From the NCBI GenBank assembly GCA_963576735.1, contig OY755196.1:6243912-6307911 (forward strand): DNA of 64,000 nt. Direction: 5' to 3'. Under the pieces are notes generated by a model. The model was not told the origin of the DNA and searched no databases. It saw only the letters and a list, made by a program, of their open reading frames with translations. Both the position numbers and the translations under genes were made by a program. Of the stretch, positions 1 through 16,246 are shown one piece after another; within the stretch, counting starts at the first letter, position 1; each line of letters begins with the position of its first letter. Source of the stretch: Bedellia somnulentella. Taxonomy: Eukaryota; Arthropoda; Insecta; Lepidoptera; Bedelliidae.

Positions 1-382
1 GAAGATATTAGAAGCTAAGTTCGATTGATTACTTTACTGGCCTTGATTTGATTTGGCCGCCGGTTAAGGGTCACGGCGGGTCGCAGCTGTCAGCTGAGTT
101 GCCCGCCTTGTCATCGCGTTTCACGCACACATTGAGCGTGTTGGTGTCAATAGTACTACTTTCTTAGTGCAAATTTTAACAAAATTTGAAAAAAAATAAG
201 TGTGTTTTTTTTCAACGAATTCTGCCTCTATACGTGATAATTAATCATACTTATCAAGGAAAACAGTCATTACAATTACACCCTGTATATAACACACTTG
301 CTATTTATTTTTGCATTTTCACATAATGGTGCAAATGTTTAATTGAAAGCCACTAGGCGGCTTAAAAAAAATAATCTTTAAT
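1..382. other. no gene seen
   Basis: I see no coding signature, RNA gene or recognisable repeat. The last part directly abuts the broken 3' end of the transposase-like gene at 383. Confidence 0.5.
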
Positions 383-1657
383 TTAAAGCATATCGGGCAA
401 TAATGTCACTTTCTGAAGGTCCATAGAAAAAAAGTGTTGATTGGCATCATTGCCTCTCTTTTTATCTTCCCTGTATTTTATTATAGCTTTTTCAGCTTTG
501 AGTTTATGTTGAGCATAGTCCATCTGCAAACTTTCAAGAGCAGGTGATGCCTCACTCGCATTTTTAATTCTTTCCTCAAACACCCCGCAAACTACACATT
601 GATCTCCTTTTGGATATTTTAAGGATATTTTCATTACCTTCATAGTACTTCTATATGTTTCAACAGAATATTTAACACCGGGATTTTTTGATATGAAGTT
701 ATTATACATAGATTGCAGCGTAAGGGTGCGTGGCAAGTAACGTGTCAGCGGTGCGTTGTTCCGCCGGTAGTGGCTTAATGTCGGTTTGTAGCTCATGATA
801 TGTTCTTCAATTATTGTCCTTGATAGCTTTTGTTTCTTGCCTCCTCGATTTTTTTAACATCAGCGTTTAAAGGTATCCGTTTTATAGCTTTACTGAGCGC
901 GGTAATAACACCGTCAGTGCGGTGTCCCAAAGTGTTCAGAAAAAATGCTTTGTAAACATTTGTCTCCTCATTATTTGGGAGATAAAAGTAAAAATATCTT
1001 GACTCATTTTTTATGTGTTTTTTGTCAGAGTTGGTAGCAGATGCAGATTTTTCTTTAACTGGTGCAATTTTCATATATTTATTCAAATATTGGCGGCGCT
1101 GTTCATTGTCCAGTAACCATTCGAAATATCCTCACGCTGTGTTTCTGTTATGTCGTTGCATTTTCGTCTACATTTACCATCGCATTTTTTTGGTATAATT
1201 GGATGCATTGTTTTATTCTTAATGATCTTCGCTGTTTCTAAAGGGTTATCTGATACATCGTTTAAAATACTGCTATCAAAAATTGGGCCAGGATAATTAG
1301 CAATAAACCGAGCTACAGATTGTCTATGGTCATCTGCTGATTTACAATCGGTGAATATAATTGTGTTTGGGTAAGTTGCGATGAAAACTGTAGTGTAACT
1401 GTTGCGTGTGTCTGGTGCAGGAAATTGGATTGAAAGAGGTCGGGGTGTCTCTTCAATGAAAAATGTAGCTTCTAGGACATCAATATCTTGAAAAAAAAAT
1501 CTCACAATATTCATTAAAAAAATGTGATGCAGGCTTTTCTACCAGAGGAATATAGTCCGGATCAGCTACAGAGTCATCACTCGAGTAATCGGTATTAAAT
1601 TCGAGGTTAGTAAAAGATGATGATGGACCAGGGACAGAATTGTTGCTGTTTGATACT
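383..1657 (-). pseudogene. broken arthropod transposase-like protein
   Basis: Reading down the minus strand, an exon begins after a pyrimidine-rich acceptor (..CCGCTTTCAG) at 1657 with an acidic stretch ending DPDYIP. The coding then shifts frame near 1514, near 1105 and near 800. Shared blocks identify the family: KCxxKCxxI....R..I..YW, a GHRTDG segment, the SHYRRxxAP...YLP block, MYxxFxxxNP, KGDQCxxC, and a final DLQKVxLLP. I know this block order from multi-copy uncharacterised proteins of aphids and other arthropods that behave like transposon products; I cannot name the superfamily. The C-terminal half after DLQ is missing, so the copy is truncated as well as frameshifted. The frameshifts are seen; the transposase role is inference. 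Confidence 0.6.
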
Positions 1658-2255
1658 CTGAAAGCGGAAAAATAAGCTAGCTAAACACACGCAACCAATC
1701 ACCGATATTTAAATATAACGAGCAATCATAAGGCAGTATAATTAGTGTTAGTTATAGCGCGAAATATACAATTTATTCACACAACAAACACACCCTAAAA
1801 AGTTAAATCTTTCCAGGTAAACACATGCACTGAGTATTGAAAAAAAACGTTGTTCAACCTGTGTTGTTGATTTAATTCTAAACATAACCTTCAACAACAA
1901 AAAACATCGGTGTTGCCCACTTAAAAATCTCAATAATCATATAGAAGTAAGAATTCATCATGTGAATAAAATAATTACTAAGAACAAGGAAAGTATTCGG
2001 AACCAATTAAAAAAAAAGTTTAAAAGATAGTAACTTAGATTGTTGATTTAAACTATGATGAATTTGACTAAGGTGTGTATTAAAATTATAATGAAATAAA
2101 AAAATTTCTGTAAAGGTGTTAAAGAACTTTCATTGTCTACCACAGCATCAAACATATTAATAAATGATAAAATTTCATGATATCCTTTCCGTCAAACGTC
2201 GATATCTCAATTTGCGGCAATTGAGATGCCACAGATTTTTCACGTTTACTGTTGG
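1658..2255. other. no gene seen
   Basis: AT-rich sequence that would include the upstream intron of the broken transposase-like gene. I see no further exon of it and no recognised repeat. Confidence 0.4.
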
Positions 2256-2553
2256 TTAATTTTTTATCATAACCTGTATTGCAGATATCGTATCGTAACA
2301 GTATTCTTCTAAAACTCCTTCGTCAACCTCAGTGTCCGTGAGCATCATCATATCGGTGCAGTGTTTGAATAGCTGCAAACCGTCCTGCAGGTGTTTGTAC
2401 CTTAATATAAGACATTCGATGTCCAATGATTCATTGCTGCTTTGTTTATTAGCAAAGGTCTCCGATTTGACCCTTGAATTGACTAATTTTTATTTTTAAT
2501 GTTTTCAGCTTTTCGTTATTCCCGCCTGTTGACTTTTTGCTTGTATCAGTCAT
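2256..2553 (-). pseudogene. retrotransposon gag N-terminus-like fragment
   Basis: A minus-strand ATG at 2553 opens a lysine-rich start (MTDTSKKSTGG). One frameshift near 2450 is followed by a helical stretch ending LEEYCYDTISAIQ before a stop at 2256. The helical N-terminus with a YxxxI motif resembles the start of BEL/Pao gag proteins such as the two other copies in this window, but no zinc knuckle or capsid core follows. The assignment is tentative. Confidence 0.3.
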
Positions 2554-2797
2554 TACACACCACGAAACGGTTTGGGCACCACTTTTGTTAAATAAATAAC
2601 AAAAAGAATATAATTTGAATTAATTCCTATTTGTTGTGAAATAATTTTGTACAAAATGTAGAAGAGAGTTTGACATGTCTTGTTATTACCATAGCAACAT
2701 TTCTCAACAGTAAGTAATGAGGGTAGTTTTTATTTAAGGTCAGCTAGTGACACTATCTCAGGTCACAGGTTCAAAATTGCGTTTATTTACGATCGCT

Positions 2798-3040
2798 ACA
2801 TACATACATACATATATCACGGCTATAAATCCCTAAAGGGGGTAGCCAGAGCTAAGGAATTAAAAATCCCTAAGCCACTTTTGGAAAGATGAGTGGGGAA
2901 AAGATGGTACAATAAAGGTTATTGGTGATGGGTCTCAAACCGCATCGCCCAAAAATCCCTTAAAAGCCCTAATACCGTTAGTCGCCTCTTACGTACACCC
3001 ACCGGAAGTGCTATTCTAAGCCGGCACTACACAGCAATAT
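2798..3040 (-). repeat. SINE-like family A, copy 1
   Basis: In plus-strand reading it starts with a (CATA)n run and ends in TAAGCCGGCACTACACAGC. The sense orientation is therefore minus, with a (TATG)n 3' tail. At least ten more copies occur in this window. There is no coding capacity. The 3' end (CTACCCCxxxxGGGATTxxxxxxCGTGA) resembles the RTE LINE tail. Confidence 0.8.
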
Positions 3041-3077
3041 ATATAGGATCGCTGGTTTATTCATAATCACATTTTTA

Positions 3078-3300
3078 ATATTTTGAGATGACGCGCTCAA
3101 AAATGTTGATTGGAACACCCCGCTGTTATTAAGTTTTTTAACAAACAAAGTAAAAGTTCAAAAGTATCCACCAAGAGATGTTGACTTTGATTTCTACAGT
3201 TCAAAAGTGGTCGAATGAGTTTAAAAGGGGAAGAGAGAGCATCGAAGATGGTGGTGGGCCTGTTTCTGCCACTAGCCGAAGCCAATGTGCAAAGAGTTGT
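3078..3300 (+). pseudogene. mariner transposase N-terminal fragment
   Basis: The plus strand encodes the mariner DNA-binding block VQKWSNEFKRGRESIEDGG, which matches the family pattern (W..F..GR.S..D). Frames are broken upstream and no catalytic region follows. It is a short relic next to the 3' end of the BEL element. Confidence 0.6.
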
Positions 3301-3520
3301 GTTTAAGCAAGGAATAAATTCAAACTAAGTCTTGCTTTTAAACACAATTTTACTTTAAATATTTGAATCACAAAATGTACAATATAATATGTTAAGTTGG
3401 CGGTGGTTGGTTGCGTAGTGAAGCTTGTCCCCGCGCCGCCGCCGCCGCTGCTCCTGCGGCTTGCCGTATCATGTGAATCAGGCGTTAACATCCTCCGGGA
3501 CGTTGAAAGCTTTACAGCTT

Positions 3521-6500
3521 TCAAGAATATAGTGGACCCCGTGGCGGACCACTCTGCTCCTGGTCGTCTTCTTCAGTAGGTCCCTGAGTCGGCAGAAGGC
3601 ACATCTTATTGACGGCCCTCCGAAGAATACCCTTTGCTGTGGTTACCTCAGCGACTCTGGTAACGCCGTCCGTGCCAGGAAAGAGACGGATAACGCGTCC
3701 CATTCGCCAATGGAGAGGCGGCAGGTTATCGTCGTTGAGTAAAACTAAGTCCCCCAGCGCAAGCTGGCGCTGTGGAGACTGCCACTTCGTGCGCTGCTGC
3801 AGCTCGGCTAAATATTCTCGACGCCAGCGGTCCCAGAAGTGCTGGCGGATCTTCTCTATAAGCTGATATCTGTTGGGGCTGGTGACAGTGACAGGAGCTG
3901 TTGGTATAGACGTGAGCGGTCTCCCGATCAGAAAGTGGCCTGGGGTCAGAGGAGAAGGATCGGTATAGTTGGTCGAGAGAGGAGACAGTGGGCGTGAGTT
4001 TAGGATAGCTTCAATTTGTGTAAACAATGTCGCTAACTCCTCAAATGTCAAAGAAGCATTTCCAGCTACACGCTTTAAATGAAATTTGGCTGAGCGTATT
4101 CCAGCCTCAAAAATTCCTCCAAATGTAGGGGAATATACAGGGGAAAACATAAATCTAATTCCTTCATAACTAGCGAAATCATAGACAGACTGACGGCTGG
4201 ATCTCAGTAGCCTACCTAATTCATTGTGAGCACCAACAAAATTCCTACCGTTGTCGCAATATATTTCAATTGGTTTACCCCTTCTTGATATAAACCTACG
4301 TAAACATAGAATAAAAGCTTGGGTACTCAGATCACTGACGAGTTCCAAATGAACGGCTTTGGTAGTGAGGCAAACGAATAAGCAAAGATAACATTTTGTT
4401 ATTCTATTACCTCGGCCTTTACGACTACTGATCATAAACGGTCCAGCAAAGTCCATCCCGCACGAGCAGAAAGGGAAAACACCGTTAGTACGCGCCTCTG
4501 GCAGGTGCCCCATGATTGGCTGCATAGTGACAGCACGCATTCTCGCGCACGTGACACAGCGCCGCGCCACGCGCCGCGCTAAACTCCTACCACCAACCGG
4601 CCAATATCTATCGCGCACGGATGACAGTAATAACTGTGGACCTGCATGGAATAAACGAATATGCTCATGGTTCATAATAAGATACATGAAATGATGCTTA
4701 GCATCTAATAAAATGGGATATTTCTTGTCGAAATCGAAACTCGAATTATTTAATCGACCACCAACTCGAACAATTTTATCAGTGTCAATAAACGGTGTCA
4801 ACTGTATTAATTTATTATTTTTTGGTAAACATTTCCCTTGTTCAAGTAGCTTAATTTCTTCGGGAAACGATTCTGTTTGGCTAAACCTAACTAAAATTTT
4901 TAACGAATTATCCAACTCCGTAATATTAAGCGGACCTGACAATCTTTGCCTTAATTTTGTAATATTATTTATAAACCGCAAGACGAACGCAAAACTCCTT
5001 AACAATTTATTAAATGTGGAGTACCTATCGAAATCGATGAGTGACTGTAAATGCGCTCGCTCGGACGCCACAAACAGAGCGTTCACCTTAATATCGGGTA
5101 AACTCTCGGTGGGGTATGAATGCCGCGGCCACTCAGACTCCTCCGTCTTTAGGAAGGAAGGACCCTCCCACCACAAAGAAGATGACGCTAGAACCTGAGG
5201 GTCCACCCCCCGCGAGGCAAGGTCAGCTGGGTTCATACTCGTAGGAACATGCCTGAATTGAAAATCACGTGTTAGTTCGTTAATTTCGTTAACCCTATTA
5301 CATACAAACATTTTTAATTGTTTTACATCAGTCTTTAACCAACCGAGAACAACAGTAGAATCGGTCCAAATTATTTTTTGTTGAACGTTAAAACGTACCG
5401 CTTTGAGAACCTTATCACATAAACGCGCGCCTAGTAGATTACCTAACAATTCTGCTCGTGGGATAGTAGTCGGCTTTAAAGGCATAACGCGAGCCTTTCC
5501 ACAAAATAGGTTCACCGTAACGTCATTGTTTTTATTGACTGAACGTAAATACACGCAAGCAGCATAGGCATCCTTTGACGCATCGACAAAACAATGTAAA
5601 TCTATTGAAATTGGGTCATGGCAAAGAACATTTCTATTAATAGTTATATTTGAGATTAAGTGCAAATTATTAATAAAATTGTACCATGTACTTACATGTT
5701 TTTGAGGTATGGGTTCTTCCCAACTCAATTTTGCAACCCATAATTGTTGTAAAAATATTTTGGCCTTAATAATACATGCACATATTAAACCGAGAGGGTC
5801 AAAAATTTTACAAGTTGTCGTAATGACAGACCTTTTTGTCGGCACTGGAGATGATTCGATGTTGGCTGTAAATTTAATTTTATCAGACTTCGGACAGTAA
5901 TTTAATCCTAGTACACTCGATTCCTTGGTTAAATCGACTAACTCGGAGTTGGAGTCGTCACTGCCGAAAGCCTGTGAACAATTAGTGCGAATTTTCCTTA
6001 AAGGTAAACAAGCCGTATCCAACACCTTTTTAACATTTTTATAGATGTACTGTAGATCGCTCTCAGTCTCCGCACCCGTGTTCAAGTCATTCAAGTCAAT
6101 GTAAAAATCATTTTGAATGACGTTAGCTATAACAGGATCCGTACATTCATATGCTAACTGCAATAAACATCTCGTACTTAGAAATGGAGCAGAAGCCATG
6201 CCATACGTGACGGTGTTCAGCTGCAATACTTGCAAAGTATTGCGTTTTCTGTCACTAGAAGTGGGGTCTCGCCAAAGAATGTGCTGGAGATGACGCTGTG
6301 AGGGGTGCAATATAATTTGCCGATACATCTTCTCCAGGTCTCCTAATAACACGTAACGATGGCCACGAAAACGTAACAAAATGGAAAATAAGTCGCTTTG
6401 AACGACGGCGCCTACGGCTTGAATATCGTTCACCGACTTCCCGGTCGATGTTTTAGCCGACCCGTCAAAAACAACTCTTAACCGTGTTGTTTCACTTTTA

Positions 6501-7609: not shown

Positions 7610-10600
7610 ATGAGACTTCTCGCATTTGTTATATTATATTACCTATGGAAAAAAAAGCAACGACAACGACGACTACAAGTACATCCTTACAATGCCACTA
7701 GGTTTCTGAGAGGCGCATTCTCTACATCGTTTTCGGATTTAAGAGAACATGGTGACAAATTCTTCAAACATTTCCGTCTGTCTACAACATCATTTGATGA
7801 ATTACTCTGCAAGATAGAACATAATTTAAAACGATCAAGTTTACGTCGAGTCCCTATAGAACCAGTTGAAAAGTTGGCGATTACCTTAAGGTAAGTTGTA
7901 TAAAAATACTTTTTATTTTTAAGTAATTACTTTATTAATTAAATTGTGTTTACAAATAAAAAAAAAACAAACAATGAAAAAGTACTCGCTCCGTAACCCT
8001 CGTTGAAATGAAATTTAGTAGAAATTGTCGTTTCCTGGTGTTAATATTTGAAATGTAATATATTTCACCACAGCTTTGCTGAACAAAATTAGAAATTGTC
8101 GTTTTCTGATGCAGTAGTAGGAAAGTGGTTTATTTCTTCACAGCTTTGCTGAACAGAATTGATGACTGTAGAATGAGACTCATATTGATTTGCAGATTGA
8201 TAGTCTTGCTGCGTGCTCTCACTAGGTACAGATCCGTTAGCTGGTAACGTTAAGTTTGAAAAATATGATGATTGATAGCTCTGCTGTATTGAGACGGTTG
8301 CAGACATTACATTAGAAGAATTAGAATCATTTTCTGGTGACATGATATTGGCATATTGATGTGATGTTTGATAACCTGGTTGCGTAGTAGTATCATTAGA
8401 ATTAGAGATTGGTGATATAATAGTAGAATTTGAGACATTTTCTGGCGACAATATGTTGGAATATTCATTAGATTCATTAGCTGGCGTTACAAAATTTGAT
8501 GTCGACGTCGTACCCACTGAATGTGGCGCGGAAAGATCCATAGCAATTTGCAACACTTTCGAACGAAATAAAAGTTTTTCATAACTGTTAAACGACTTTA
8601 GAATTGGACCAAGAGAATTAAAAAATGCTAAATCGTCAGAGCTTATGTCTGGCATATTTTTGTCCAATAAATCTACTAACTGCCTCTCAAACATGGAGTT
8701 CTCTGGTATCCGCCGTGTATTTTTTCTCTTGCGAGCCCATGTCGGTTTATCTTGGTCAGCCACCGTAGTAAAACTGTTTTGAGAAGAGCCAGGAATATCT
8801 GCGTTCATTGTTACTTGAGCTTGAGTTTCTGATGAACTTGAATATTCATCAATGTTGTTCAAGGATTCTGAAACTACGTTTTCAGTGGTACGATCAAGAA
8901 ACTTCAATTCTTCGAAATAAATATATTTTTTAACTGTTTTTGCACCGCTGCCGGATGGTGTATTTTTCATATTCGCTTTAGTTTTAAAATATCCGTCTCT
9001 TGCAGACTTCCATCGTTGACGTAAGAGCTTATCTGAAAAAAAAACAATAAAAAGTTAACCAATACCTTAATTTTTTTAAATCAACACACAGTCAACAGTA
9101 TCGATTAGCAAAACAGGTCCAGCAGGGTTAGCCAAGTGGCAAGCGTTGAATCGAAACGTGATCGAAACGCTCGCAAAAATGTATGAAAATAATTAATAGA
9201 ACGATATCCCACGTGACTTAGTCGTATCAAATTATGTATTGGTAGCCAAGTGTCATTTTCAGTCGAACGAAACCTCAGTATATAGGTATATGTACATTAT
9301 ATAGGATAATTTGATACGACTACGTGGGATATCGTTCGACAATTATTTCCATACATTTTGCGAGCGTTCGAAACGCTCGCAAAATGTAAAACGCTTGCCA
9401 CTTGGCTAACCCTGCAGTGGTGATATCGTAATTGAGCTACAAATAAACTTCCACACTTATAATATTTGTAGAATTAGTAGAAAGTAGGGTATGAATAAAA
9501 AACAGTATAAGTGGTTAGGCGTGTCACATATTTGCCTGAGTTTTTAATTAAGTAAATTTTAATTTATTATGTACTTCACTTTTTTTTGAAGTAAAATAAT
9601 ATTATGTACTTACGTGTGACACACGTGCTTACCACCTATACTTTTTATTGATTCTATCCTTCTTTCTACATGTGAATAATTGAGACATTACACGAAATAA
9701 CTGTATTTAACTAGTAATCGAAATATTGAAGTTAAATACAGTTCACAACTGTATTTAACTAGTTATTAAAATATTCGTGTAATGTCTCAATTATTCACAT
9801 ACATTGTAGAGTTAAATACAGTTGTAAACTGTATTTAACTAGTTACATAACAAAACTAAACTTGTTTATTTAAGTTAACTAGTATTAAATATTCGTAGTT
9901 TGTTAATTTATATTAGAGGCGACCGTTTAATACACTGCTTTTTTTTTTCAGATTTTTGGCAACTGGCAACACATATTCCGATCTACATGTCACGTACAGA
10001 ATGGGAGTTACTACTATAAGCAATATCGTCAAGGAAGTTTGCATTGAGATATGGGAGAAACTACGGGAAGAATGCATTCCTCAACCAACAACACAAATGT
10101 GGCAACGTATTAGTGCAGAGTTTGAGATGAATGCAAACTTTCCTAACTGTTGTGGGGCAATAGACGGTAAACACGTACGAATAATTAATCCTGCAGGTGG
10201 AGGGTCAATGTTTTACAATTATAAGAATTTTTATTCTATTGTCCTTCTGGCAATGTGTGATGCCAACTATTGCTTTACTTATGTCAACATTGGTTCTTGC
10301 GGTAAAAACTCTGATTCCACTATATTCCAAAACAGTGAACTATTTCAACAGTTGGAAAGAAATAATTTAGGATTACCGGCTCCAAAGTACTTGCAAGGAT
10401 CTAATATAGTAGCACCTCATGTAATAGTTGGTGATGGAGCATTTGGTATATCAAACTATGTCATGAAACCTTATCTTAGAAACGATATGACCTACAAACA
10501 AAAGATATTCAACTACCGTCTAAGTCGTGCCAGGAGGTACATAGAGTGTACATTTGGGATATTATCAAACAAATTTAGAGTGTTTCACACACCAATGAAT

Positions 10601-10828
10601 GCCAGCTTCTCCAATGCAAAAACTATAGTTCAAGCTTGTTGCGTATTACACAATTTTATCAGAGTGCGAGACGGCTACAATGAAAATGATTCACTAAGCA
10701 TTACTGGTTTAATTGACATGGATATTCAGCTAGTTTCTAGAACAGGAAACACACTACGCGAGGTATTTGCTGATTATTTTATATCGCCCGCTGGTAGCGT
10801 GTCGTGGCAAGACAGACATATATTCTAA
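7610..10828 (+). CDS. PIF/Harbinger transposase, two exons
   Basis: Exon 1 is 7610-7890 (donor AAG|GTAAGT) and exon 2 is 9952-10828 (acceptor T10-CAG). Joined in phase they give the family block LAITLRFLATG. The N-terminal half has STTSFDELL and PIEPVEKLA. The catalytic domain (DDE_4 type) shows GAIDGKHV (first Asp), VGDGAFG (second Asp) and RRYIECTFGIL (Glu), then the family's C-terminal CCVLHNF. Total is about 385 residues, normal for the family. I chose the ATG at 7610; an in-frame ATG at 7577 is possible. The role is cut-and-paste transposition with the partner MADF protein encoded antisense in the same element. No stop or frameshift is seen, so it may be functional. Confidence 0.92.
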
Positions 10829-11696: not shown

Positions 11697-12868
11697 CACG
11701 AACCTTTCAAACGACACTGATAAGATTGATGACCGCTTCGTAAACAAATAGTACACAATTTAAATTGAGTAACGTCGCGTACCCTACTATCAATATCTAA
11801 ATCTTTAAACTTTGCACATTCATGAACAAAATGGCTCTTGTTACATATGACACAAGGTTGACATCGTTTATTAACATTATCCGATGATGTAAAAAATGCT
11901 CTTACGTTTTTGTTATGGGAAATAGGCCTTTGTTCGTACTTGTCGTTTCGATTATAATGGGTTGTTTCTAAAATGTCTGCGCGACTTCGTAAAAATGTGT
12001 AAAATTGATCGAGTGTCGGTAATTCGAACAAACTGTTCTTATGTTCTTCCCACTTTCTACTCGTATTGGAATCTAACTTTGCTGAGGTAATAAATATTAA
12101 AAGAACATCCCATTGTTCGGTAGGAAGTCCCAAAGACTGTAGAGATCTTAAATTTTTAGATATGTGATCAATTAAGAAACGTAATGCCTTAAAAGATTCT
12201 TTGCTCATAGATTCAATACTTAATAATGACTTGAGATGATTATTTATAAGGATATTTTTGTTATTGTATCTCTCGCATAGTAGTTGCCACGCATTGTTGT
12301 AATTGTTTGCAGTAAACTCGAGTGATCTAATTACCACAGATGCACTACCCTCCAAACTAGACCTTAGATAATGAAATTTATTTATTAATGGTATGGATTC
12401 ATTTTGATTTATAAGAGAATCAAATGTGTCACGGAATTCGAGCCACTTTAAATAATTCCCATCAAATTTTGCTAAATCAATAGTGGGTAGTTTAATCGAG
12501 TTAAAAGAATGTGAACATGAACCAGCCACACTTTCATTAAGATTTGACTCTTTGTGAGAGGAAAACTTTTCAATTAAGTCTTGCGCAATGGAAAGAAGAG
12601 AATAGAATTGAGTTTCTATAGTATCTCTCTCAGTTAACTGTTCGTCCACGTTCGGCGACAGTATCTCTATTTCTGTCTGTAAGTTGTTAAAATCAGAGAG
12701 TAATTCTTGAAATTTTACCATTCTCATTGATAGATCCTTAATTTGAATTGAAGTTATTTTATCCGCCAATTGAATTAAAACATTTAAATGATCTTTAAAC
12801 TTAGTTAATCTACCTTTTATAATACTACGTTTCTTTAATAAATCTTTAAGCATGTCTTTTCCTTCCAT
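11697..12868 (-). CDS. gag: BEL/Pao gag
   Basis: It starts at MEGKDMLKD (12868) with an N-terminal coiled-coil, then the DUF1759-type capsid region: LPTIDLAKFDGNYLKWLEFRDTFDSLI is the conserved block (key residues L-P-x-F-x-G and W-x-x-F-x-D). LLCERYNN and two CCHC-like knuckles (CVICNKSHFVHEC and CTICLRSGHQSYQC) follow. The open frame continues 67 bases into the Harbinger terminus. It is the upstream partner of pol at 3521-7479. The C-terminal link to pol is not in frame. Confidence 0.85.
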
Positions 12869-12904
12869 TATAAATATTATAATAGAACAATTAACGTAGC
12901 ACAA

Positions 12905-13529
12905 GAAACGTTAAAATAACCAAACCTCCCAAAGCACTGTCTAGTACTTTATAATCCAACCGCCAATCTGTCTATGCGACGCGCGCGCCGATCACAACTT
13001 CAGCTAAAGGTATCGGCAGCAGCTGTAGTAGTCTGCTCGGAACACCCGAACTTTATTTGATGTTTTTCACTGAAATAGTCGGCAGTTGCGTGTAAATAAA
13101 TTTGAATTTTATGTATTATTTTGATGAAGGTAGTTAACAATGATAGGCAAAATAATTGTAAATGATAACGTCTAAATGATAAAACTTCAATAAGAAATTT
13201 GTGTAGTGATTGAAGTAGGGAAAAAAACTTGTCAATTTCGTCTGAGCCAATAAATTGGTTTAGGTTTGCTTGAAGTGCAAATAAAATGGAAATTGATAAA
13301 AATATAGTAGGTAGTTAAATAACTTATTATGTAAAAGATAATTGATTGATTTTGTAACGCTAAGGCCAAAGAGTGAATTAGACAATACGCTTTAAATTAA
13401 CAGCAAGATATTGTTTCAACACTTTGGGGCGATAAATATCTACACAACATGAATTGGAAAGACAGGAAAGGATAAGAATAGAAGGATGTAGGTAGGCCAA
13501 TACTTCCCTTGGGATGAACAAACAGATGC
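12905..13529. other. BEL 5' leader region, no gene
   Basis: The first 150 bp are upstream of gag and GC-richer; an LTR would be expected here, but I cannot match it to sequence beside pol. The remainder is AT-rich and featureless. Confidence 0.4.
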
Positions 13530-13752
13530 AGGCCTATCGCTGTTTTGTACGAATACACTGTCACATGACTAAGTACAACTCAGCCATGTGGGTTTCCTCA
13601 CGATGTTTTCCCTCACCGTTAGCAACCATGATAAATTAACCACACATATAACTTTAGAAAAGACAAATTGGTGTAGGCCCGTCCCAGGATTGGAACTCAC
13701 GCCCTTCTGTTTTTCGGGCGGGTGTTCTACCCACTGGACTATCATGAGCTAT
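13530..13752 (-). repeat. tRNA-derived SINE family B, copy 1 (truncated)
   Basis: Matches the full copy at 60460-60823 in reverse, from the tRNA-like head (GTGGGTAGAACACCCGC and GTTCCAATCCTGGG on the minus strand) to the GCCTGC...ATCGC block. The 3' tail is missing. Confidence 0.75.
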
Positions 13753-13977
13753 TATTTTAACAATGTACATGAACAATGGTTTCCGCACTAGGTTAAATCC
13801 TGTATAGCGGGTAACCTTACAAGATAGTTTTTTTTTAATTTAAACATTTCTTTTTTTTTATTAAGACTAAGTTTAACACTAAAAACCACACAGAAAAGCT
13901 ATGTGAATATTATTGCTATTTTATTAATTAAAAAATAATAGAAAAGAAACTTATACTAATAGAATTAATATGTCTGT

Positions 13978-14015
13978 GGGTGGTGTGTATGTATGGTGTG
14001 TGTGTGTGTTTGTGT
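13978..14015. repeat. (TG)n microsatellite
   Basis: GTGTGTATGTATGGTGTGTG-type dinucleotide run in an otherwise featureless gap (13753-14133). Confidence 0.7.
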
Positions 14016-14133
14016 GCAAGTTTATTTTTGAACGATTAGTACGTCTTCAGTTTCATCGTATGTCATACCAAACATTCTGTTATCACATTTTTTAATTTGT
14101 ATCTACTCTTATTTCAACGTATCTACTCATATT

Positions 14134-15187
14134 TCAACTTTTCATCACGGCATCAGAAAGTTTCTCATTAATAAGTGAATTTGAAAACACCGAGCAGGTG
14201 TCTGACAGTGAGACCCTATACTCTTCTAAATGTTCCTCGTTCGATTGATCCGACCTGCCCAATTTTGTAACAAGTTTTACTGGATCGGGTACCAGGAGAA
14301 CATTACCTTCCTCGTCTTGGATGACAAACATGCATACATACATACATACATATACTCACGCCGTTAATTCCCATTGGGGTAGGCAGAGACTATCGATCGC
14401 CACTTCGTACAATCCTGGCAAACCTCTCTGGCTTCGTCTACATCCATCAATCTTTTCATACGTGCTCTTTTTATCTTCATACTTCGGATGCCTGCCTTTT
14501 TGAGCACACTTTCAATTTGGTTCAAGTGTGTCTTTCGAGGCCGTCCTCTACTAACATTACCTTCCACATTAGCTCTATAGATACCTTTTACCAATTTCCT
14601 ACCATCCATCCTCTCGATGCGCCCAAACCACCTCATCTCATGACAAACTTCGAACAAAAATAGGTGTACTTGTAATATCTAAAATACTTAGATTCCATAT
14701 TAAATAATGTAGCTGTAAAAATGCCCAAATTCATGTTAAACCTGTCATCTCCTAATATTAAGCAGTCGTCCCCACTGATATACGCCGGACTTGCCTCCTC
14801 TTTGGGTAATAACGTTGCTAGTACAGCCATTAAATAAAAGGTCTTCATAGTTAAGGTGTTAGCATTCCCAGATTTACGTTGATAGCTAATTTTACAGCGT
14901 ATCTTGTTCTTTATGTCAACCAACGTTGTTCTACAATGCGAATTAATCCAAGCGTGAATGAATTGCTCATCAAATCCAAACTGACGTAGGAATTTCTCTT
15001 CGAATTGTAACATTAATTCTCCTTGTGATTTGTCGTACTTGGACACATCCACTTCCAGAGAAATAGCGTCATCGATCTTTAATCCCTTCTCAATGCATAT
15101 CTGCGAATTCTTTTCGTTCAGGTCTTCAGGAGCCGTTCCGGAATTAAACACTATATGAGGCAAAAACATCGGAACAAATCTATAATA
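14134..15187 (-). pseudogene. endogenous RNA-virus RdRp fragment (virga-like)
   Basis: The minus strand encodes the palm region of a positive-strand RNA-virus RNA-dependent RNA polymerase. Motif A is DVSKYDKSQ (ORF residues 41-49). Motif B is SGNANTLTMKT, where the usual Asn is Lys. Motif C is SGDDCLI. A downstream block holds PDPVKLVTKLGR then HLEEYR. The DxSKYDKSQ and QRKSG signatures are those of the alphavirus-like supergroup, closest to virga- or tobamo-like polymerases, known also from arthropod viruses. There is no helicase or capsid and no 5' half. An RTE LINE tail (14330-14639) interrupts it with a 9-bp duplication, and the reading frame is the same on both sides. It is therefore an integrated, non-retroviral virus relic, not a contaminant. 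Confidence 0.85.
14330..14639 (-). mobile_element. RTE-type LINE 3' fragment inside the RdRp relic
   Basis: Encodes an RTE-like ORF2 C-terminus: RWFGRIERMDGRKLVKGIYR, RGRPRKTHLNQIESVLKKAG, EAREVCQDCTKWRSIVSAYP, then a 3' end CTACCCCAATGGGAATTAAC and a (TATG)n tail. ATGACAAAC at 14321-14329 and 14640-14648 is the target duplication. It is 5'-truncated, as usual for target-primed insertion. Confidence 0.88.
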
Positions 15188-15246
15188 TTATAACTTAAAG
15201 ATACAAAACAACTAATAATTAGATTTAAAATTATATAAAAATACAT

Positions 15247-15383
15247 AACATAAACGTTCACGCCGTTTATCCCCGAAGGGGTTGGCAGAGGTACCGATAC
15301 TTCTGTGTCCAGAGAAATGTACCCACGTTTTGCATGGACAGTGTACTCACGTGATAGGGGGCAGGCCTATCACCGTATATATA
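15247..15383 (-). repeat. SINE family B, copy 2 (3' part only)
   Basis: Only the tail-proximal part is present: ATAACATAAACGTTCACGCC, CCCCGAAGGGGTTGGCAGAG, then CACGTGATAGGGGGCAGGCC. The head is missing. It bounds the 5' side of the RdRp relic. Confidence 0.8.
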
Positions 15384-15408
15384 AAAATAGATTGTTAAAA
15401 TAGATAAT

Positions 15409-15954
15409 TTGGATTTGCCGAAGTTTAGTGGAGATCTCACTGAGTGGCTTAGTTTTTGGAACATGTTCCAAAGCCTGGTGGATCGGAGGTCAGATTTGTC
15501 GCCAGCTCAGAAATTGGCCTACCTTCGTTCATCCCTGCGGGATGAGGCTTTGGACATGATGAGTCATCTCACTGTGACTGATGATAGTTATCCCACTGTT
15601 GTGGAACTTCTAACCCGAAGGTACCATAATGTAAGACGGCTTGCGGACCAGCATGTTGCTCGGATTCTCACCTTGTCCAGGATTTCTAACCTGAGTAGGT
15701 TGCGGGTGGACTTTTTGAATCCAATGCTGGTTTCTTTTAATGCATTGAAGATTCTCGACCTACCTGTAGATTTCTGGTCCTATTTATTATTACATATTGT
15801 GCTAGAGAAACTTCAACCCGAGTTAAAGGTTCGCTTCGAACACAAATTTGGAGGTGATAGTGCCTCTCATCTTCCTCCCTTTTCGGATTTGTTGCTTTTT
15901 CTGGAGAATGAGTGCCGGGTGGGAGACATTTCAGGGGTTCTTCCTAGTTCTTGA
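15409..15954 (+). pseudogene. BEL/Pao gag fragment
   Basis: The capsid block DLPKFSGDLTEWLSFWNMFQ matches the DUF1759 pattern of BEL/Pao gag, followed by KLAYLRSSLRDEA and LLTRRYHN. It lacks the N-terminal coiled coil and the zinc knuckles. It differs from the 11.7-kb and 53-kb copies, so a third BEL lineage is represented. Confidence 0.75.
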
Positions 15955-15989
15955 CTAGGGAGTCAGCCGGTTCGTGTGGAACCGAAGTC

Positions 15990-16246
15990 GTGGCGTGTGA
16001 ATCAGCCACGTTTGACCGAACGGAGAGATACCAGAGTTTATATGGCGCCGCCTCTATTTTGGAACAAGATGTGTACGTAGATGATATCTGCACTGGTGCC
16101 GATACAGAGGCCTCGTCTATTACGCTCAGAGATGAATTGATTGGCATTTTGAAATCGGCAGGTTATGAACTTGGAAAATGGTTATCTAACTCACCTGCTT
16201 TATTGTCTGGATTGCCTAGAGAGCACCAACAGGATCCTCACATTTT
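15990..16246 (+). pseudogene. BEL/Pao RT fragment
   Basis: Contains the RT motif-C block DVYVDDICTGADT followed by the BEL-type SAGYELGKWLSN. Unlike the pol at 3.5-7.5 kb, the YVDD box is intact, but almost all the rest of pol is gone. It follows the gag fragment in the same orientation, so the pair looks like one internally deleted element. It runs directly into a Gypsy gag start. Confidence 0.75.

What the first reader, a model, noticed from the sequence alone, without database searches (positions are those of the whole stretch)
14134..15187. Endogenised positive-strand RNA-virus polymerase in an insect genome
The minus strand carries RdRp motif A (DVSKYDKSQ), motif B (SG...T...K) and motif C (SGDD) in correct order and spacing, plus a downstream PDP..KL..KLGR block. 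The wording is that of virga/tobamo-like polymerases of the alphavirus-like supergroup, which normally have no DNA stage. A LINE inserted in it with a target duplication shows it is true chromosomal DNA. Apart from the LINE, the polymerase region shows no stop over about 350 codons in two pieces.
Basis: partly seen in the sequence, partly recalled or inferred. Interest (0 to 1): 0.88.

Follow-up and report, generated by a model that had tools for sequence, protein, structure and literature searches.

The report
Fossil RNA-virus polymerase in insect chromosome
A piece of the copying enzyme of an insect RNA virus has been stuck in this insect's chromosome long enough for a jumping gene to land in it; such viral fossils are well known, but the same genome also holds younger, repeated copies of related viral genes that deserve a closer look.

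Summary
The core observation holds. Minus-strand 15187-14640 and 14331-14134 encode two pieces of a Martellivirales-type RdRp (Pfam RdRP_2, E 2.1e-44 and 2.7e-12). A 310-bp interspersed repeat with a 9-bp target duplication splits them. The nearest entry of a viral structure library is an unnamed long viral protein at 67% identity; the next is Beult virus at 41%. Corrections: about 183 + 65 stop-free codons, not 350; the homology runs upstream across a TAA; motif B has K where 24 of 24 relatives have N. It is a decayed endogenous viral element, a known kind: related cases are reported in ants, tephritid flies and aphids.

The stranger result lies outside the window. All 22 RdRP_2 matches found in the 549-Mb assembly are on two of 486 contigs. 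One set sits in a BEL/Pao element with 99.65% identical LTRs that carries an open RdRp and SP24 cassette repeated at 3,165-bp spacing. Another is a helicase-RdRp tandem array about 104 kb left of the window. Whether these contigs are special (W chromosome?) could not be tested.

The parts
14640..15187 (-). RdRp piece 1: palm with motifs A, B and C (open frame 14633-15187; its last codons come from the insert)
   Evidence: PF00978 E 2.1e-44, profile 180-351; 66% identity to P0001 over 90%
15188..15208 (-). upstream edge of the viral homology, with in-frame TAA at 15190-15188
   Evidence: whole-genome PF00978 match covers window 14630-15208; tblastn reaches 15208; codon
15023..15049 (-). motif A DVSKYDKSQ
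14840..14878 (-). motif B RKSGNANTLTMKT, off consensus (K for N)
14762..14776 (-). motif C SGDDC
14330..14639 (-). LINE-like interspersed repeat inserted in the RdRp, simple-repeat tail at its low end
   Evidence: 9-bp flanking duplication, tail, 7 other matching places in the window
14321..14329 (.). target-site duplication, left copy
14640..14648 (.). target-site duplication, right copy
14134..14331 (-). RdRp piece 2 with the PDPVKLVTKLGR block (14254-14289), up to a TGA
   Evidence: PF00978 E 2.7e-12, profile 344-410; 63% identity to P0001
15226..15376 (-). part of another interspersed retroposon-like repeat, its simple-repeat tail facing the upstream edge of the viral piece
   Evidence: 6 other matching places in the window; alignment

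Best explanation
The locus is a decayed endogenous viral element. RNA of an insect virga/nege-like virus (order Martellivirales) was copied into DNA by a host retroelement's reverse transcriptase and inserted into a germline chromosome (copying and route inferred). About 250 codons of its RdRp remain recognisable. A LINE-like repeat then inserted into it with a 9-bp target duplication (shown); the viral homology is crossed by an in-frame TAA (shown) and a motif-B residue kept by every relative examined is changed (shown). It most likely makes no polymerase and drifts as neutral DNA (inferred). A small-RNA role is possible and untested. Related viruses entered this genome several more times; in one case a BEL/Pao element carries the viral genes, so BEL/Pao capture is a concrete route in this genome, though not shown for the window copy.
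For: RdRP_2 on both pieces, in register. Relatives at 66, 64 and 57% identity. Model of piece 1 with mean pLDDT 79, best viral-library match 67% identity over 182 columns. Tree: window with P0001 and P0004 at 100/96, with P0005 at 100/98. Position inside an 11.9-Mb contig. Target duplication. TAA inside the homology. Departures at 4 of 33 conserved columns, against 0 of 33 in each of the three closest relatives. A more broken relative at C27:8760870-8764930.
Against: Piece 1 stayed open over 182 codons; for a 5% chance of that, neutral divergence can be at most about 11%, so the copy is not very old or has decayed slowly. Departures at conserved columns are not unique: P0017 8 of 34, P0027 5 of 35, P0003 4 of 34, of 21 rows examined. 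No poly(A) or target duplication was noticed at the outer ends of the viral piece (read by eye, no systematic test), so the route is open. Four IMG/VR scans found no relative.
Confidence: 0.92

Rival explanations
1. The fragment is a working part of antiviral memory: it lies in a piRNA-producing, transposon-rich region and yields antisense small RNAs against related viruses.
For: Transposon-rich surroundings. Small RNAs from insect viral elements are reported, e.g. 24-29 nt reads from some aphid elements (passages, PMC11978097). Relatives of the virus appear in sequence collections.
Against: No small-RNA data could be examined. Strand relative to any piRNA cluster is unknown.
Confidence: 0.15
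2. A domesticated host gene: the polymerase piece is kept for a protein-level function.
For: 182 codons of piece 1 are open. Group-B copies elsewhere differ between C27 and C28 by 41 synonymous and 24 nonsynonymous codons and no stop in 642 codons, a dN/dS-like ratio of 0.18, but two infections by related strains explain that as well.
Against: Frame split by an insert, TAA in the homology, motif-B residue changed, only part of the domain present. In the group-A array 0 synonymous, 11 nonsynonymous and 0 stop changes among six copies show no constraint after amplification.
Confidence: 0.03
3. Contamination or misassembly: RNA-virus cDNA from an infected sample joined to the contig.
For: Close relatives at 57-67% identity exist.
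Against: A repeat with target duplication sits inside it; the contig is 11.9 Mb; a more decayed relative lies on another contig.
Confidence: 0.02
4. A retroelement or cellular polymerase that merely resembles a viral RdRp.
For: All share a palm fold; a group II intron reverse transcriptase appears in the PDB fold list.
Against: RdRP_2 at E 2.1e-44 with motifs A, B and C in order; that reverse transcriptase has 13-14% identity against 67% for the best viral match.
Confidence: 0.005

Closest known systems
Hepe-Virga RdRp EVEs of ant genomes (PMC6540820, passages)
   Same: RdRp fragments of the same virus assemblage in insect chromosomes; [quoted passage not shown]
   Different: Other hosts; here a fragment split by a dated repeat insertion, in a genome that also has tandem arrays
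Virgaviridae nrEVEs of tephritid flies (PMC10689555, passages)
   Same: Short fragments of the same virus group (4 of 64 nrEVEs), one annotated RdRp, 227 nt
   Different: Window copy is longer (about 750 nt of viral homology)
Virga/nege-like virus group with 'pervasive endogenization into insect genomes' (Kondo et al. 2019; title only, as cited; the paper is not held)
   Same: Same virus assemblage and phenomenon, by its title
   Different: Not readable here, so overlap with this species is unknown
Beult virus and unnamed A0A8K1XFG4
   Same: Exogenous relatives of the RdRp: 41% and 67% identity over 172 and 182 alignment columns. Beult virus: Hepe-virga clade, found in D. suzukii by RT-PCR but not by PCR of DNA (passages, PMC5888908)
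   Different: RNA viruses, not chromosomal
eBxnv-1, nodavirus RdRp in a Bel/Pao element of a nematode (PMC5177903, passages); chuvirus glycoproteins in BEL-Pao elements of mosquitoes (PMC7642597, passages)
   Same: BEL/Pao capture of RNA-virus genes, as in array A of this genome
   Different: Other virus groups; a word search for 'tandem' in both texts found 0 occurrences. Not shown for the window copy

Membership tests
Non-retroviral endogenous viral element | Homology to a non-retroviral virus protein | tested here: met
   PF00978 on both pieces; viral-library match at 67% identity
Non-retroviral endogenous viral element | Embedded in host chromosomal DNA | tested here: met
   Inside C28, 11.9 Mb; repeat inserted with target duplication
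Non-retroviral endogenous viral element | Present in independent individuals or assemblies | not testable with these tools
   One assembly held
Martellivirales (virga/nege/kita-like) RdRp | RdRP_2 profile above cut-off with motifs A, B and C | tested here: met
   152.6 and 46.7 bits against 27; motif B off consensus
Martellivirales (virga/nege/kita-like) RdRp | Methyltransferase and helicase upstream in the replicase | tested here: not met
A helicase stands beside the RdRp in group B elsewhere
Nege/kita-like subgroup | SP24 virion membrane protein near the replicase | tested here: inconclusive
   Not seen in the window frames scanned; present beside the RdRp in array A, a different virus (34% identity)
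Functional RdRp | Complete RdRp domain and conserved motif B asparagine | tested here: not met
   Profile 180-410 of 440 only; K for N; frame interrupted
LINE-mediated integration of the viral piece | Poly(A) and target duplication at its outer ends | tested here: inconclusive
   None noticed by eye; outer ends abut other repeats
BEL/Pao capture of the viral piece | Viral piece between two Pao LTRs | tested here: not met
   No direct repeat between window 1-4500 and 12000-16000 beyond a 56-bp repeat shared with the insert

The most novel reading that the evidence does not exclude
This genome is capturing insect nege/virga-like viruses repeatedly and recently, into two repeat-rich chromosomes. 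A young BEL/Pao element has taken up an undamaged RdRp and SP24 cassette and multiplied it in tandem, partly fused in frame with Pao pol, and a second helicase-RdRp piece was amplified separately on both chromosomes. The window copy is an old member of that continuing process, which may supply virus-derived small RNAs, perhaps from a W chromosome.
Probability: 0.15. Interest if true: 0.75.

Novelty: new member of a known kind. Interest (0 to 1): 0.45.

Why it matters
The window copy adds one more dated trace of an insect virga/nege-like virus. Its genome matters more: it offers copies at very different stages side by side, from an old broken fragment (window) to near-identical tandem units inside a BEL/Pao element with both LTRs. 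That makes the routes of RNA-virus endogenisation (LTR-element capture, tandem amplification, chromosome bias) directly testable within one species.

Tried and rejected
IMG/VR was scanned four times with piece 1, A1, A3 and P0005: no relative. NCBIfam gave nothing useful. The first structure model, from 4 sequences, was poor (pLDDT 39.7) and was not used; 26 sequences gave 79.1. Pao LTRs around the window element at 3.5-12.9 kb were not found. Other RdRp pieces in the window: tblastn with 28 proteins gave only chance-level rows elsewhere (E 0.12 or worse). The W-chromosome idea was to be tested by placing protein-kinase genes (PF00069) on contigs, and SP24 (PF16504) was to be sought genome-wide; neither search was ever answered. 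The clustering of six loci on two contigs has a crude chance of 7.9e-9 if the contigs had been named beforehand, but they were not, and duplication within a chromosome may link some loci. Domestication of group B was not accepted, because two infections by related strains explain the synonymous excess equally well. My notebook entry calls the upstream stop TAG; it is TAA.

Full report
WHAT IS THERE. Two open pieces on the minus strand match Pfam RdRP_2: 15187-14636 (E 2.1e-44, profile 180-351) and 14355-14134 (E 2.7e-12, profile 344-410). Motifs A, B, C and the PDPVKLVTKLGR block are in order. Between them lies an insert, 14330-14639, flanked by the 9-bp duplication ATGACAAAC. It has a simple-repeat tail and 7 other matching places in the window. 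The stop-free length is about 183 + 65 codons, not 350. The whole-genome Pfam match reaches 15208 and contains a TAA; tblastn with P0005, P0022 and P0024 reaches 15208-15211. Downstream the homology stops near 14146-14137 in most rows, about 50 residues short of the relatives' ends.

WHAT IT IS KIN TO. A search of about 5.8 billion proteins gave 3 hits for piece 1, best P0001 at 66% over 90%, and 27 for P0001. All carry PF00978; most come from short unnamed contigs, so they may be viruses or other integrated copies. In a tree of 22 rows (20 of the 28 proteins; 8 short or irregular ones left out) the window piece groups with P0001, P0004 and P0005 (100/96 and 100/98). A model of piece 1 (26 sequences, pLDDT 79.1) matches A0A8K1XFG4 best in the viral library (67% identity, no name at hand), then Beult virus (41%), with Hammarskog virga-like virus (38%) and Bemisia tabaci negevirus 1 (38%) among the first seven. 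Beult virus is placed in the Hepe-virga clade (passages, PMC5888908); Hammarskog virga-like virus in Martellivirales. By sequence the solved relatives are alphavirus nsP4 (E 4.8e-4 to 3.3e-3); two S100-A9 rows at E above 0.5 are chance.

DECAY. Of 33 columns conserved in at least 85% of the other rows, the window departs at 4; P0001, P0004 and P0005 at none. Three rows depart as often or more (P0017 8 of 34, P0027 5 of 35, P0003 4 of 34), so this is suggestive only. The clearest change is K for the motif-B asparagine, kept by 24 of 24 relatives with a letter there. An open piece 1 limits neutral divergence to about 11% at the 5% level. The insert differs from its other places in the window by about 15-20%, and from one on C27 by 7%.

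HOST. The window is C28:6243912-6307911 of a 549-Mb, 486-contig assembly. Of 16 window frames given to Pfam, most are transposon-like (Pao, gypsy, LINE, PIF1-type helicase), some gave nothing, and two matched the RdRP_2 finding. The transposase at 9917-10828 is 91% identical to one of Pararge aegeria.

THE REST OF THE GENOME. Piece 1 finds 19 matches and PF00978 22, from 28 candidates, none in the 14 control genomes. All 22 lie on C27 and C28, which hold 4.5% of the bases. They form at least six loci. Group A, C27:2807-2824 kb and 2879-2884 kb: six copies with the domain open over profile 2-435 or 6-435 and one broken into two frames; copies 99.3-99.8% identical, unit 3,165 bp (3,164 in the second block), the first copy offset by 5,731 bp. 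Each unit holds a Pao peptidase region, the RdRp (492 aa) and SP24 (205 aa, E 2e-18). In one copy peptidase and RdRp share a 731-aa frame. The first block lies within a BEL/Pao element: 287-bp LTRs 99.65% identical at 2801200-2801486 and 2827520-2827806, gag and pol parts in order, and in each unit examined an LTR fragment in inverted orientation. C27:2809605-2811915 was not fetched. Among copies, changes are 0 synonymous, 11 nonsynonymous, 0 stop in RdRp (6 copies) and 2, 6, 0 in SP24 (7 copies): young and without sign of constraint. Group B, C27:3666-3679 kb and 3754 kb, and C28:6127-6139 kb (four units of 3,048 bp, the last ending 104 kb left of the window): helicase and RdRp up to profile 257-272, so without motif C, in frames up to 1439 aa. 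C27 and C28 versions are 96% identical with 41 synonymous and 24 nonsynonymous differences in 642 codons (ratio 0.18, p 2.4e-11 against neutral proportions). Their edges differ, so two entries of related strains, each then amplified, is my preferred reading; selection on host copies is not excluded. The last two loci are a broken relative of the window copy at C27:8760870-8764930 and a single piece at C27:5580249.

MECHANISM. For the window copy: viral RNA, reverse transcription by a host retroelement, insertion, later repeat insertion, decay. Only the last two are shown. Array A shows viral genes bounded by Pao sequence and an inverted LTR fragment, as expected if Pao reverse transcriptase switched template to viral RNA and the product inserted into a Pao copy; that step is inferred.

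KNOWN OR NEW. Martellivirales EVEs in arthropods are stated as known (passages, PMC12548735), with cases in ants, tephritids and aphids (citing other work); helicase pieces of plus-strand RNA viruses are reported in lepidopteran chromosomes (passages, PMC6338049). So the window copy is a new member of a known kind. BEL/Pao capture of RNA-virus genes is known from a nematode and mosquitoes. I found no report of a tandemly repeated virga/nege-like RdRp and SP24 cassette in a BEL/Pao element in the searches, which cover open-licence papers only.

Noticed in passing
L002-L007, L009, L010 (G000 C27:2801200-2827806): BEL/Pao element with 99.65% identical LTRs carrying an open nege-like RdRp and SP24 cassette, repeated at 3,165-bp spacing.
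   Followed up: partly
L015 4935-7127 (-) (G000 C27:2878935-2881127): 731-aa open frame joining a Pao peptidase and an RdRP_2 domain.
   Followed up: partly
L018, L019 (G000 C28:6126954-6139560) and L023-L025 (C27): Head-to-tail helicase and truncated RdRp units on both contigs, 96% identical, with an excess of synonymous differences.
   Followed up: partly
G000 C27 and C28: All 22 RdRP_2 matches found in the assembly are on these two contigs, 4.5% of the bases; whether they are sex chromosomes is untested.
   Followed up: no
L021 868-2079 (+) (G000 C27:8756868-8758079): 404-aa open frame with a double jelly roll-like domain (PF21738, E 1.2e-119) a few kb from a broken RdRp relative; a capsid-type fold by its name.
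   Followed up: no
C27:2884563-2885858, C27:3673482-3674777, C28:6224033-6225336: mariner-type transposase copies 99.8-99.9% identical, two of them next to the viral arrays; a recently active element.
   Followed up: no
window 13528-13747 and 15226-15376: Two partial copies of one interspersed repeat on either side of the viral piece, the later half lying first; 5 and 6 other matching places in the window.
   Followed up: partly
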